Positions 36,184-40,957 of a stretch of DNA of 56,260 nt are shown here, in pieces (position 1 is the stretch's first letter; every line of letters starts with the position of its first letter). Source of the DNA: Mycobacterium nebraskense (GTDB taxonomy: Bacteria > Actinomycetota > Actinomycetes > Mycobacteriales > Mycobacteriaceae); contig NZ_LQPH01000071.1 of NCBI RefSeq assembly GCF_002102255.1, forward strand, positions 1-56,260. The letters run 5' to 3'. The notes beneath the pieces are model-generated. The model did not search any database. It was not told the DNA's origin and saw only the letters and a program-made list of their open reading frames with translations. The position numbers were made by a program, and so were the translations under genes.

Positions 36184-36981
36184 TCACCCCCGATTGTTGA
36201 AGTTGTCGACGACGCCCTGTAGTACCTCCGGGTGCCGCAAGAACGGAGTGATGATGTCGACCGGCAACGGGAAGACGACGGTCGAATTCTGGTCCGCCCC
36301 CAACTCCAACAGCGTTTGCAGATAACGCAATTGCAGCGAGGCGGGGCTCTTCGAGAGGGTCTCTGCTGCTTGACGCAGCTCTTCGGAAGCCTGCAATTCC
36401 CCGCGGGCGTTGATGACTTTCGCGCGGCGTTCGCGTTCGGCTTCGGCTTCGCGGGCCATCGCCCGCTGCATCGACTCAGGAATCTCGACGTCTTTGATCT
36501 CCACGACCCGGACCTGCACGCCCCACGGCTCGGTCTGTTTTTCGATGATCGTGCGCAGATCGCTGTTGAGGTCCTCCCGGTGTGCCAGCAGGGTGTCCAG
36601 GTCGGCCCGGCCGAGCAGCGAACGCAGCGTCGTCTGGGCGATCTGCGAGGTGGCCACCGCGTAGTTTTCCACCGCCAGAATCGCTTTCAGCGGCTCCATC
36701 ACCTGGAACATGACGACGGCGTTGACCCGGGCCGGCACGTTGTCGCGGGTGATCACCTCCTGCGGCGGAATGGTCAGCGTCACCAGCCGCTGGTCGACGC
36801 GGATCATCTTGTCCACAAAGGGGATAAGGAAACGAAGGCCGGGACCGTACAGCGGGCGCACATGGCCCATCCGGAAGACGACTCCTCGTTCGTACTCGCG
36901 CAGCACGGCCAGCGACCAGATCGCGAGCACGGCAAGCGCGACAATCGCGGCGATGACGACGACGATCACAACGGCGGTCAT
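36184..36981 (-). CDS. slipin (SPFH/stomatin-like membrane protein)
   Basis: 265 residues from ATG 36981 with AAGGAGGG upstream; the frame is open to 37443 as shadow. One N-terminal helix, then the SPFH domain: EYERGVVFRMGHVRPLYGPG, QEVITRDNVPARVNAVV, TLRSLLGRADLDTLLAHRE. A coiled-coil follows (AMAREAEAERERRAKVINA). Prokaryotic slipins organise membrane microdomains or scaffold proteases. The start overlaps the zinc-membrane gene by 4 bases, making it the third gene of the norZ operon; a NfeD partner is not present. Confidence 0.9.
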   Translation of the reverse strand: MTAVVIVVVIAAIVALAVLAIWSLAVLREYERGVVFRMGHVRPLYGPGLRFLIPFVDKMIRVDQRLVTLTIPPQEVITRDNVPARVNAVVMFQVMEPLKAILAVENYAVATSQIAQTTLRSLLGRADLDTLLAHREDLNSDLRTIIEKQTEPWGVQVRVVEIKDVEIPESMQRAMAREAEAERERRAKVINARGELQASEELRQAAETLSKSPASLQLRYLQTLLELGADQNSTVVFPLPVDIITPFLRHPEVLQGVVDNFNNRG

Positions 36982-37604
36982 GTTGTCTTGCCCTCCTTGC
37001 TTTCCCAGCTGCCCCACCGGGTCGAATACTTGTCTATCGCCGCGGCCGCCTGGTCCTCGAGCGCGGTGCGGTGCGGGAGGTGCTCCGGCGCGTTGGACGG
37101 GGTGTTCCACAGGTGGCGGACTAGCGGCAGGCCGAGCAGCGCGACAACCAAAATGGTGCCCGTCAAGACCAACACATCGGCGGCCGAGTGGTTGGCGACC
37201 AACGTGGCCAGCGGCAGCACGATTCCGAATGCGGCCACGCAACAAGCGATCCCGCGGTGGAACCGTCCGGCGTCCGAATGCGGCCACGGGTCGACCTCGC
37301 GGCTGATCTCCCGGCCGTGATCGGATGTCGTACAGCTGGATTTGACGGGACAACTGTTGCACACCACCGGTAGGGAGCGATATCGCATGACCCGGTGCCG
37401 CGGATCGAACGAAGTCGGCCAGAGCCAGTGGTCCTGTGGACACAGCCAGGCGTCATGGTCGGGCCGGTAGGTGAATTGACCTGTGCGCCAACGGGCCGCG
37501 CGCGCCGACGCCCGTCGGGCCATCGAGTCGAAACTCCAGCCGATGGCCAGCAGGGCAAGGGAATACCCGGCGATCAGCCATACCGAGGCAACCGGTTGAG
37601 TCAC
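36978..37604 (-). CDS. membrane protein with transposase-type zinc-binding segment
   Basis: 208 residues. One N-terminal helix (VWLIAGYSLALLAIGWSF), a soluble loop at about 40-105, and two C-terminal helices. The loop has WLCPQDHWLWP then RYRSLPVVCNSCPVKSSC and TTSDHGREISRE. This pattern resembles the small cysteine domain in the C-terminal part of IS1182-type transposases, but no catalytic transposase domain is present. It lies 3 bases after norZ and overlaps the slipin gene, so it is probably a redox- or metal-sensing or assembly partner of the NO reductase. Function is inference. Confidence 0.75.
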   Translation of the reverse strand: MTQPVASVWLIAGYSLALLAIGWSFDSMARRASARAARWRTGQFTYRPDHDAWLCPQDHWLWPTSFDPRHRVMRYRSLPVVCNSCPVKSSCTTSDHGREISREVDPWPHSDAGRFHRGIACCVAAFGIVLPLATLVANHSAADVLVLTGTILVVALLGLPLVRHLWNTPSNAPEHLPHRTALEDQAAAAIDKYSTRWGSWESKEGKTT

Positions 37605-37607
37605 CGG

Positions 37608-39926
37608 TCAGTCTTTCGCCGACACCGTGGCGCCGGTCTCCGGCTCGGTCGGGGCATCGACGTACAGCGGGTGTTCGGGCAATTCTTGAACCGTTGAACC
37701 CGTGCGGAAATGCCGCAACGCGGTCCAGGCGATCCAGACAAACGGCAGCACACCGCCGACGATCAGGATGATGTCGCCCGGCATCCGCAGCCATTCGATC
37801 ACCGCATTGCCGGGTCTGGTGATGTAGCCCAGCGAACGAGCCTCGAAGTACCCATCGTTGACCGAGTGATACAGCTGCAGAACGCCCAGCGGCAGCAGGG
37901 TGACGAACACCATCCAGGCGAGACCAATGTTCATACACCAGAACGAAATTCGCGCTAACTTTTCCGGCCATTTGTCGGCCGGAATCACGTAGCGAAAAGC
38001 AAACATCGCCAGGCCGACGGCGAGCATGCCATAGACGCCCATCATCGCGCCGTGTGCATGGTTGGCGGTCAGTGCGGTGCCGATCTGGTAGTAGGACACG
38101 ATCGGCAGGTTGATCAGGAATCCGAAGATGCCTGCGCCCAGGAAGTTCCAGAATCCGACGGCGACCAGGAACATCACCGCCCAGCGGTGCGGGAAGGGCT
38201 GGGAGTCGCCCGACTGCTGCCGCGAACCCAGCTGCAGGAACGCCCACGCCTCGACGGTGAGGAAGGTCAACGGAATGACTTCGGCCGCCGAGAAGAACGC
38301 GCCCAGCGCCATGTGTTCCACCGGGGTGCCCGAGAAGTACAGGTGGTGCATGGTGCCGATGACGCCACCCGCCGAGTACAGGATGACGTCAAGGAAGATC
38401 ACGCCCAGCGCGATCCGTTCGCGCACCACGCCCAGCAACACGAACATGTACGCCACCATCACCGTGGTGAACAGCTCGAGGAAGTCCTCGACCCACAGGT
38501 GCACTACCCAGAACCGCCAGAATTCGGCGACGGTGTAATGCGTTCCGCTGCTGGCCAATAGCCCGACGGTGTAGAACGCGGGGATCGCCAGTCCGGAAAA
38601 GAAGAACAACCACGGCATGTTCATCTTCGATTCGCCTTTGAGCCGGGCACGCATGCCCCGGTAGATGATCGCGATCCACAGGAACATGCCGATGATCAGC
38701 AGGATCTGGAACAGCCGCGGCAGGTCGAGATACTCCCACTGCTGGGACAGCAGCCCGTGCGGGATCACTCCGTAGATGGAGAGTGCCTCGCAAATCAGCG
38801 AGCCGAACACCACCACCGCAACCGCGCCCAGCAACACGTAGGCCAGCAGGCCCTGACGGCGCGGCTCGCGGCGGGAGATGAACGGCACCAGGAAGATGCC
38901 ACCGGCCAGAAAAGCTGCCGCGGTCCAGAACAGCGCCAGTTGCACATGCCAGGTGCGCGCCAGGTTGTACGGCAGCACCCGGGCCAGATCCAGCCCGAAG
39001 AAGTTCGACAAGTCGGCCCGGTAATGCTCGGCCGCGGCGCCCAGCAGCGTCTGCGCCAGGAACAGCACCGACACGATCGCGAAGAACCAGATCGTGGCCC
39101 GCTGTGCCGGCGTCAGGCTTACCTCGCCCGGTTGGCGGAACGACAGCGTGGAGCCCTCGGCGCCGTGCCAGCCGACCTTCTGGCTCCATCGCCCGTAGAC
39201 CGCGAACATGATGCCGATACCGCCGAGCAACGCGATCAGCGACAGCGCCGACCACACGATCACCGGAGCGGTCGGGCCGTTGTCGACCCGCGGCTCGGCC
39301 GGCCAGTTGTTGGTGTAGCTGTACTTGTGGCCGGGGCGTTCTGCCGCGCCTGCCCAGGCCGTCCACGCGAAGAACGCCGTCAAGTCGTGGATCTGCGCCT
39401 TGTCGGTGATCATCCGGGGCAGCAGCCCATATTTGGTCGAGTTCTCACCGAAGTAGGCCGCGTAATGGCCTTGGATGTGGTCGAATGCCGCGGCCTGCCG
39501 GTCGGTGAACACCAGCGTCTTGGTGGCGGCGTTGTACCGGTTGGCCCGGAACTCGGTGACCACCCGATCGCGCGGATCGGTCACGCCCTGGGTCCGCAGT
39601 TGATTGGCAACGTCGTCGGTCGCCATCCGCAGGTATTCGGCGGTGTAGTCAGGTCCCAGGTATGCGCCATGCCCCAGCACCGAGCCGTATTCCATGAGGC
39701 CCCGAGCCTGGTAGAGCTCCTGCCCCCGGGTGATGTCGTCGCCGGTGAACAGCAGCTGGCCCGATTCGTTGACGACTTTGTCCGGCATCGGCATCGATGC
39801 CGAGTACGTGCGATAGGCCAGGATTCCCATGACCAGGAAGCCGAAGATCATCACCAGGGCGACGCCTTGGATCCAGCCTTTGCCTACCAGGGGCTGCGAG
39901 GATTGAGCGGTCTGTTGAGCGGCCAT
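37608..39926 (-). CDS. norZ: quinol-dependent nitric oxide reductase (qNOR)
   Basis: 772 residues from ATG 39926, with GGGAG 8 bases upstream; the open frame to 40049 is not used. An N-terminal helix and a periplasmic domain (GQLLFTGDDITRGQELYQ) replace the cytochrome-c subunit of cNOR, with no CxxCH motif, so electrons come from quinol. The NorB core carries haem and iron ligands: TWHVQLALFWTAAAF, VVHLWVEDFLELFTT, GTMHHLYFSG, ANHAHGAMMGVYG. It reduces 2 NO to N2O at the membrane. First gene of a three-gene operon, with DosR-like boxes upstream. Confidence 0.95.
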   Translation of the reverse strand: MAAQQTAQSSQPLVGKGWIQGVALVMIFGFLVMGILAYRTYSASMPMPDKVVNESGQLLFTGDDITRGQELYQARGLMEYGSVLGHGAYLGPDYTAEYLRMATDDVANQLRTQGVTDPRDRVVTEFRANRYNAATKTLVFTDRQAAAFDHIQGHYAAYFGENSTKYGLLPRMITDKAQIHDLTAFFAWTAWAGAAERPGHKYSYTNNWPAEPRVDNGPTAPVIVWSALSLIALLGGIGIMFAVYGRWSQKVGWHGAEGSTLSFRQPGEVSLTPAQRATIWFFAIVSVLFLAQTLLGAAAEHYRADLSNFFGLDLARVLPYNLARTWHVQLALFWTAAAFLAGGIFLVPFISRREPRRQGLLAYVLLGAVAVVVFGSLICEALSIYGVIPHGLLSQQWEYLDLPRLFQILLIIGMFLWIAIIYRGMRARLKGESKMNMPWLFFFSGLAIPAFYTVGLLASSGTHYTVAEFWRFWVVHLWVEDFLELFTTVMVAYMFVLLGVVRERIALGVIFLDVILYSAGGVIGTMHHLYFSGTPVEHMALGAFFSAAEVIPLTFLTVEAWAFLQLGSRQQSGDSQPFPHRWAVMFLVAVGFWNFLGAGIFGFLINLPIVSYYQIGTALTANHAHGAMMGVYGMLAVGLAMFAFRYVIPADKWPEKLARISFWCMNIGLAWMVFVTLLPLGVLQLYHSVNDGYFEARSLGYITRPGNAVIEWLRMPGDIILIVGGVLPFVWIAWTALRHFRTGSTVQELPEHPLYVDAPTEPETGATVSAKD

Positions 39927-40039
39927 TGGCGAGTCTCCCGTCTGATGATGGGTGGTGGTGCCCGCTGTCCATCTGCGCAAACAGCTTGTATTCGGTTGTC
40001 GTCCTGGTCGAGACGCCAATTTTTGCCGTCGTCGGTCCC

Positions 40040-40079
40040 TAGGGGCCAATGGCCCCTATATCGGGACCAATGCCCCTGG
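40040..40079. promoter_or_regulatory. tandem DosR-like boxes between norZ and the usp gene
   Basis: Two dyads about 20 bases apart, centre to centre. Box 1, TAGGGGCC-AAT-GGCCCCTA (40040-40058), is perfectly symmetric. Box 2, GGGACC-AAT-GCCCC (40063-40076), matches the GGGAC-N-GNCCC core of the DosR consensus. Each matches about 13 of 20 consensus positions as I recall it. They lie in the 233-base divergent gap and could serve both genes. Nothing else is recognised in this gap. Confidence 0.7.
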
Positions 40080-40159
40080 GGCAATGCCATTCCCGGCCAT
40101 AACGTCATGGCTGAGCGACGTGAAAGTTGGGCGTCTACAGCTCAGCAGAGGAGACGGCG

Positions 40160-40957
40160 ATGAGCAATAGCCATCCAGCTCCGGCAGTCGTCGTGGGGGT
40201 GGACGGGTCGAGGGCGGCGGAGCGGGCGGCGCTGTGGGCGATCGATGAGGCGGCCAGCCGGGACATCCCGATGCGATTGGTGTACGTCATCGATCCGCGG
40301 GACGCTTCCACCGCGCATGCCTGCGAGGCGCGCCTCGCCGCGGCACGGACGGCGCTGTCCGACGCTCATCGGTCCGTGGACGCCACCGGCGCTCCCGTCA
40401 AAATCGAAACCGACATTCTCTGCGGAAGGCCGCTCGCCAAGTTGATGGAGGAGTCGAGATCGGCGGCCATGATGTGTGTCGGTTCGATCGGACTCAACCA
40501 TGCCCGTCACGGCGGGACCTCCGTCGCAACCTCCTTGGCCCGCTCGGCGCGGTGCCCGGTTGCCGTGATCCATCAGCCGGCCAGACGGTCAGCAGTCCCG
40601 AAGATCAGCAACGTCCTGGCCGAAGTCGACAATGGCATGGTGCTGCGGCACGCGTTCGAGGAGGCGAGGCTGCGCGGAGCCACGTTGCGCGCACTCTGGG
40701 TATGCCAGGGTGAGGACGCCGACGATGCCGGCGACGGAATGCGCTCGGCGCAAGCGCAATTGAGTCGACGCCTCGCGCGGTGGACGCGGCTGTACCCCGA
40801 TGTGCGGGCGGAGTCCGCGATCGTGCGCGGCAGTGTGGAGCATTACCTTCGCGCCAGCCCCGAAGCAGGGCAGTTGCTGGTCACCGATTGTCATACCGCT
40901 GAGCAGGTTTGCAGCGCAGGGCATTCCGTGCTGGCGATACGGTGCAGCAACCTGTGA
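40160..40957 (+). CDS. tandem universal stress protein (UspA family)
   Basis: 265 residues from ATG 40160 with GAGGAGA upstream; an in-frame TTG at 40127 is less likely. Domain 1 has VVVGVDGSRAAERAALWA and the ATP-site MCVGSIGLNHARHGGTSVATSLA. Domain 2 (from residue about 145) is degenerate, ending SAGHSVLAIRC without the glycine-rich ATP motif. Many mycobacterial tandem USPs belong to the DosR dormancy regulon, in keeping with the boxes upstream. Divergent from norZ. Confidence 0.9.
   Translation: MSNSHPAPAVVVGVDGSRAAERAALWAIDEAASRDIPMRLVYVIDPRDASTAHACEARLAAARTALSDAHRSVDATGAPVKIETDILCGRPLAKLMEESRSAAMMCVGSIGLNHARHGGTSVATSLARSARCPVAVIHQPARRSAVPKISNVLAEVDNGMVLRHAFEEARLRGATLRALWVCQGEDADDAGDGMRSAQAQLSRRLARWTRLYPDVRAESAIVRGSVEHYLRASPEAGQLLVTDCHTAEQVCSAGHSVLAIRCSNL

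What the first reader, a model, noticed from the sequence alone, without database searches (positions are those of the whole stretch)
36184..40957. Candidate NO/hypoxia module: qNOR, zinc-type membrane protein and slipin, divergent from a USP gene under DosR-like boxes
norZ, a Cys-rich membrane protein and a slipin are spaced 3 and -4 bases apart, so they form one operon. Two dyads of the DosR type, about two helical turns apart, lie in the gap shared with a tandem universal stress protein gene. M. tuberculosis has no qNOR that I know of at this place. A quinol-linked NO reductase induced by the NO/hypoxia regulator, with a dedicated scaffold (slipin) and a new Cys protein, would be a coherent NO-defence unit.
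Basis: partly seen in the sequence, partly recalled or inferred. Interest (0 to 1): 0.8.

Follow-up and report, generated by a model that had tools for sequence, protein, structure and literature searches.

The report
NO reductase with transposase-domain membrane partner
Three adjacent genes that stay together in many mycobacteria and other actinobacteria encode an enzyme predicted to turn toxic nitric oxide into nitrous oxide, an uncharacterised predicted membrane protein carrying a four-cysteine domain shared with jumping-gene enzymes, and a slipin that is likely its scaffold; in this genome they are likely switched on by DosR, the regulator of the low-oxygen and nitric-oxide response.

Summary
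norZ (37608-39926), a Cys-rich membrane protein (CysTM, 36978-37604) and a slipin (36184-36981) are spaced +3 and -4 bases. Two DosR-type boxes 21 bp apart (40039-40058, 40060-40079) lie between norZ and a tandem USP gene. All 80 named loci with CysTM have the slipin and 79 have norZ. NorZ keeps the catalytic qNOR residues. CysTM is not without relatives: its Cys4 domain (C-x26-C-x2-C-x5-C) is homologous to one in IS1182 transposases and sits among predicted membrane helices. DosR control is supported by sequence (dosR/dosS present; box pair p=5e-5) but untested, and it concerns a subset of species; by plain match count to the 20-bp consensus the boxes do not stand out. The USP gene is not part of the conserved unit. 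A NirK fusion in this genome, found mostly in norZ genomes, suggests partial denitrification beside NO defence. What CysTM and slipin do is inferred.

The parts
37608..39926 (-). norZ, quinol-type NO reductase, 772 aa from ATG
   Evidence: PF22085 + PF00115; 3ayf E 1.7e-153; catalytic residues kept
36978..37604 (-). CysTM, 208-aa predicted membrane protein, likely NorZ partner
37278..37484 (-). Cys4 domain of CysTM (C-x26-C-x2-C-x5-C), shared with IS1182 transposases
36184..36981 (-). slipin (SPFH/Band_7), overlaps CysTM by 4 bases
   Evidence: E 3.5e-39; same 51 genomes as norZ
40039..40058 (.). DosR-type box 1
   Evidence: 12.7 bits
40060..40079 (.). DosR-type box 2, 21 bp from box 1
   Evidence: 14.5 bits; strict-pattern match 40063-40076; pair p=5e-5
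40160..40957 (+). divergent tandem universal stress protein gene; shares the box region, not part of the conserved unit
   Evidence: two Usp stretches; 39% identical to the USP gene before dosR

Best explanation
This is a conserved three-gene operon for a quinol-type NO reductase predicted to reduce NO to N2O, with a predicted membrane protein bearing a transposase-type Cys4 domain that is likely a dedicated assembly or stabilising subunit, and a slipin that would scaffold it; here the operon is likely activated by DosR from two boxes. Shown: operon spacing, co-occurrence, conserved qNOR residues, homology of the Cys4 domain, the boxes, and dosR/dosS in the genome. Inferred: CysTM binds NorZ in the membrane; the Cys4 centre faces the cytoplasm and holds a metal (zinc or an Fe-S cluster) that helps load or protect the enzyme; the slipin clusters the complex; DosS/DosT sensing of NO or low oxygen activates norZ and the USP gene together. 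NO may come from a host, from neighbours, or from the cell's own NirK fusion.
For: Same 51 of 148 genus genomes for norZ, CysTM and this slipin; 54 of 54 CysTM copies directly behind norZ, gap at most 114 bp; three genomes carry two whole units; 79 of 80 named loci have norZ and 80 of 80 the slipin, the exception being cut by a contig end. Pairwise distances of norZ and CysTM correlate at r=0.94, norZ and slipin 0.82 (75 loci). qNOR catalytic residues in 75 of 75 loci. CysTM under purifying selection, dN/dS 0.10-0.15. Five Arg follow the first helix and none precedes it. G863 keeps a 116-aa membrane protein behind norZ that matches CysTM weakly (E 4e-4) and lacks the Cys domain. Boxes and dosR/dosS.
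Against: No binding, metal or expression data. Counts are not corrected for shared descent, which also raises the distance correlation. Four norZ-positive genomes have no CysTM (G189, G393, and the partial hits G283, G277) and G327, G349, G489 no slipin nearby, so neither partner is universal. G630 has only an unrelated-looking 109-aa membrane protein there. A CysTM-like stretch stands without norZ in G452. Plain consensus count and genome-wide control do not favour the boxes; second-copy units have none.
Confidence: 0.55

Rival explanations
1. Partial denitrification: a membrane NirK fusion likely makes NO from nitrite and NorZ removes it, so the unit is the second step of nitrite-to-N2O respiration at low oxygen rather than a defence against host NO.
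For: Own genome encodes an 861-aa protein with cupredoxin and NirK domains. Hits of this kind at E<=1e-30 in 30 of 148 genus genomes, 26 of them with norZ (Fisher p=4e-11; sets).
Against: 25 of 51 norZ genomes have no such hit; all hits are below the family's curated cut-off; the p-value ignores shared descent; in this genome the two genes lie on different contigs.
Confidence: 0.4
2. CysTM is a NO or redox sensor: its Cys4 centre is damaged by NO and would change NorZ activity or stability, rather than assembling the enzyme.
For: Invariant Cys4 on the predicted cytoplasmic side; obligate neighbour of an NO enzyme.
Against: No DNA-binding domain found; no data on the centre; nothing here separates sensing from assembly.
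Confidence: 0.2
3. The unit is not DosR-controlled; the boxes are chance palindromes and another regulator acts.
For: Strict pattern no commoner than its control genome-wide; boxes 13 of 20 by plain count; 39 of 41 loci without USP lack a box pair at p<0.001; an Rrf2-type gene (by eye only) before norZ in L195.
Against: Box pair p=5e-5 and kept in 23 of 33 loci with a divergent USP; matrix sites beside DosR-regulon-type genes in this genome.
Confidence: 0.15
4. CysTM is a transposase remnant of no function, as database names suggest.
For: Some sources name relatives 'Transposase DDE domain-containing'; IS1182 match.
Against: dN/dS 0.10-0.15, four Cys kept in 80 of 80 named loci, strict co-occurrence with norZ, added helices.
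Confidence: 0.03

Closest known systems
Quinol-dependent NO reductase (qNOR/NorZ; 3ayf Geobacillus, Alcaligenes, Neisseria)
   Same: Full-length alignment, N-terminal cytochrome c-like domain, catalytic His/Glu set, quinol-site His and Phe
   Different: Asp in place of Glu332 (69 of 75 loci); accompanied by CysTM and slipin, while qNORs are described as a single fused subunit (PMC8756737, passage)
IS1182-family transposases (Cys4 domain)
   Same: 14 invariant positions including all four Cys in alignment with three transposases
   Different: CysTM lacks the DDE and DUF772 domains and has membrane-type helices; scores below the IS1182 model's curated cut-off
NorQ/NorD maturation proteins of cNOR (PMC9976466, abstract start in a listing)
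   Same: Possible like role: helping an NO reductase get its iron
   Different: AAA+ and VWA proteins; no sequence likeness indicated; CysTM's role untested
DosR regulon of M. tuberculosis and M. avium
   Same: Consensus-type boxes, divergent USP gene, dosR/dosS present
   Different: No qNOR among regulon genes in the passages read (PMC2275270, PMC11876180); regulation here untested
Slipin/SPFH membrane scaffolds
   Same: Band_7 domain
   Different: Operon partner is CysTM; the usual NfeD partner (recalled) is not in the operon

Membership tests
qNOR | Catalytic His508, Glu512, His559, His560 equivalents | tested here: met
   75 of 75 aligned loci and the window (list from PMC10286720)
qNOR | Quinol-site His328, Glu332, Phe336 | tested here: inconclusive
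   His and Phe in 75 of 75; position 332 is Asp in 69 and Glu in 6
qNOR | NO to N2O with quinol | not testable with these tools
   needs enzyme assay
NO dismutase | His560 to Asn and altered quinol site | tested here: not met
   His560 and His328 equivalents kept
DosR regulon | DosR-type box(es) upstream, matrix from independent sites | tested here: met
   14.5 and 12.7 bits, pair p=5e-5; plain consensus count only 13 of 20
DosR regulon | dosR and a sensor kinase in the genome | tested here: met
DosR regulon | Induction by NO/hypoxia, lost without dosR | not testable with these tools
   needs expression data
IS1182 transposase | DDE catalytic domain | tested here: not met
   208 aa; only residues 34-106 match model positions 348-419 of 488; PF13751 19 bits, cut-off 25.1
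IS1182 transposase | Cys4 domain | tested here: met
Slipin/SPFH | Band_7 domain after an N-terminal membrane helix | tested here: met
   PF01145 E 3.5e-39, residues 26-195
Metal-binding Cys4 protein | Bound zinc or Fe-S cluster | not testable with these tools
   only the Cys pattern is shown

The most novel reading that the evidence does not exclude
Actinobacterial qNORs have a second, so far unrecognised subunit: a membrane protein that shares the Cys4 domain of IS1182 transposases and uses it as a metal centre to load, protect or gate the NO reductase; with a dedicated slipin, a DosR switch and a membrane NirK fusion it gives non-tuberculous mycobacteria a hypoxia-inducible nitrite-to-N2O route.
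Probability: 0.3. Interest if true: 0.78.

Novelty: new variant of a known kind. Interest (0 to 1): 0.6.

Why it matters
qNORs are described as a single fused subunit (PMC8756737, passage). A partner that follows norZ in 62 of the 68 norZ-positive genomes seen in three samples makes a missing assembly or control factor directly testable, and would be a transposase-type domain put to use in respiration. A DosR-controlled NO reductase, with a NirK fusion in the same genome, would add NO removal and N2O formation to what the DosR response does in environmental mycobacteria.

Full report
What is there. The window is contig C71 of a 6.73-Mb genome; the closest named loci are Mycobacterium. On the minus strand lie norZ (37608-39926), CysTM (36978-37604) and a slipin (36184-36981), spaced +3 and -4. 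233 bp separate norZ from a plus-strand tandem USP gene (40160-40957). On one side follow a small gene, an inositol-phosphatase-type gene (NCBIfam HisN) and two acyl-CoA-dehydrogenase-like genes, on the other a reductase and a release-factor gene (the names fadE23, fadE24, fprA and prfB used in my scripts are recalled).

The enzyme. NorZ carries the qNOR N-terminal domain and COX1 and aligns over residues 28-744 with the Geobacillus qNOR 3ayf (E 1.7e-153). In the 75 of 80 named loci with a norZ stretch over 600 aa, the His508, Glu512, His559 and His560 equivalents, Glu581, two later His, quinol-site His328 and Phe336 and a late Asp are kept in 75 of 75; position 332 is Asp in 69 and Glu in 6 (residue lists from passages of PMC6713497 and PMC10286720; the late Asp is recalled as a quinol-site residue). 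So it is a qNOR by residues and not an NO dismutase.

Co-occurrence in the genus (148 genomes, drawn evenly by the tool). CysTM: 56 have a match at E<=0.001; 51 are long (151 residues or more) and five are remnants or short transposase-like pieces (G015, G029, G033, G042, G064). norZ: 52 at E<=1e-30, 51 substantial (split in G045, G076 and G089) and one fragment (G023). The two sets of 51 are identical. All 54 CysTM copies lie on the same strand directly behind norZ, match-to-match gap at most 114 bp. The slipin at 72% identity or more is in the same 51 (split over two contigs in G094); the rest of the listing, which is cut, shows only fragments at that level (G015, G024) and paralogues of at most 51%. 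G046, G048 and G131 have two whole units. G015, G023 and G029 keep the USP gene beside remnants: the operon has decayed in place. These counts are not corrected for common descent.

Beyond the genus. Of 94 relatives found, the best 80 were kept; all 80 have the slipin and 79 norZ (L103 begins at a contig end). 33 of 80 show the neighbours of this window and 47 do not; USP is near in 31, so the unit has moved or its surroundings have changed. They include Humibacillus, Microlunatus, Rhodococcus, Kocuria, Ruicaihuangia, Tessaracoccus, Georgenia, Arachnia, Ornithinimicrobium, Propionibacterium and a MAG labelled Acidobacteria. Because these loci were found through CysTM, they cannot show norZ without it; the next two samples can. 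In 394 genomes of the class 18 have norZ: 15 with CysTM behind it; G863 with a 116-aa membrane protein there that matches CysTM weakly (E 4e-4) and lacks the Cys domain; G630 with a 109-aa membrane protein there without significant match; G283 (partial hit) with none. In 396 genomes of the phylum 11 have norZ: seven with CysTM (G327, G349, G489 without slipin nearby) and four without (G189, G393 and the partial hits G283, G277). Over the three samples: 68 distinct genomes with norZ, 62 with CysTM, 2 with a short membrane protein in its place, 4 with neither. Two CysTM-like stretches have no norZ: G504 (contig edge) and G452 (none on a 5-kb contig). Seven weaker hits look like transposases; three were checked and carry DUF772 and DDE domains.

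The partner. CysTM residues 34-106 match the IS1182 model (E 7e-11, 41.6 bits, below its cut-off of 270; positions 348-419 of 488). Aligned with three real transposases, 14 positions are invariant, all four Cys among them. The 26-2-5 spacing is found by full signature in 78 of 80 named loci; L053 and L104 differ behind the last Cys and keep all four. The model has helices 6-40, 111-135 and 141-163 around a beta-rich domain. Five Arg follow the first helix, none precedes it, so the domain is predicted to be cytoplasmic. dN/dS is 0.10-0.15 for CysTM, 0.06-0.13 for norZ, 0.04-0.10 for the slipin (four comparisons). Pairwise distances of norZ and CysTM correlate at 0.94, norZ and slipin 0.82, CysTM and slipin 0.82 (75 loci). 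Which way the domain travelled is not shown.

Regulation. The genome has a dosR-like gene (response regulator + LuxR domain) next to a dosS-like kinase (GAF, HisKA_3) and USP genes, and a second such kinase (names by recalled likeness). The window's USP is 39% identical to the one before dosR, so it is another paralogue. The strict pattern has 23 places; one is 40063-40076, and six others used for the matrix stand beside HSP20, nitroreductase, pyridoxamine-oxidase, desaturase, WS/DGAT and release-factor-like genes, families of the kind known from DosR regulons. Those six were picked from pattern matches for that reason, and the reversed control pattern has 24 places. The matrix (six sites, both strands, plus the consensus of PMC2275270, passages) did not use the norZ boxes and ranks them best in the window. 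Pair p=5e-5 in 20,000 control windows; 23 of 33 loci with a divergent USP have a pair at p<0.001, against 2 of 41 without; loci are related. By plain count to the 20-bp consensus the boxes score 13 of 20 and do not stand out. Second-copy loci L069, L072 and L078 have no site above 12 bits. L195 has what looks by eye like an Rrf2-type gene before norZ. L101 (Microlunatus) has a 23.1-bit site.

How it likely works (inferred). DosS/DosT sense NO or lack of oxygen; DosR at both boxes activates norZ-CysTM-slipin and USP. NorZ takes electrons from quinol and reduces NO. CysTM binds NorZ, suggested by the strict pairing and shared divergence, and its Cys4 centre would hold a metal used to load or protect the enzyme; the G863 form hints that the membrane part can serve without it. 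The slipin would hold the complex in a membrane patch. NO may be external or internal: the genome encodes an 861-aa protein with cupredoxin and NirK domains (2dv6 E 1.8e-50), which keeps the copper-ligand motifs by eye (motif roles recalled). Such hits at E<=1e-30 occur in 30 of 148 genus genomes, 26 with norZ (p=4e-11), none over the family's cut-off.

Verdict. Observation confirmed. I found no report of this unit in the held library by the searches (listings; passages of PMC13332983); the library lacks most subscription papers.

Noticed in passing
L244:6750-9335 (G000:C181, minus strand): 861-aa predicted membrane protein with cupredoxin and NirK domains, near a WS/DGAT gene with a DosR-type box and two hemerythrin genes; such hits are mostly in norZ genomes. 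In G048 and G131 it lies about 25 kb from the second norZ unit.
   Followed up: partly
L225:16089-17737 (G000:C47): A second slipin (48% identical) behind a flavodoxin gene with DosR-type sites of 18.6 and 11.5 bits, on the contig that carries dosR.
   Followed up: partly
L261, region 1034-1330, and L262:1055-1381: Short membrane proteins (116 and 109 aa) behind norZ where CysTM would be, without the Cys domain; only the first matches CysTM, weakly.
   Followed up: partly
L196 and L194: CysTM stands beside genes that look by eye like cytochrome bd genes in two distant genomes.
   Followed up: no
L078:5056-5544: A hemerythrin-like gene (by eye) directly before a second-copy norZ unit.
   Followed up: no
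L200, L201, L202: Decayed versions of the locus: remnants of norZ, CysTM or slipin between USP and phosphatase genes.
   Followed up: no
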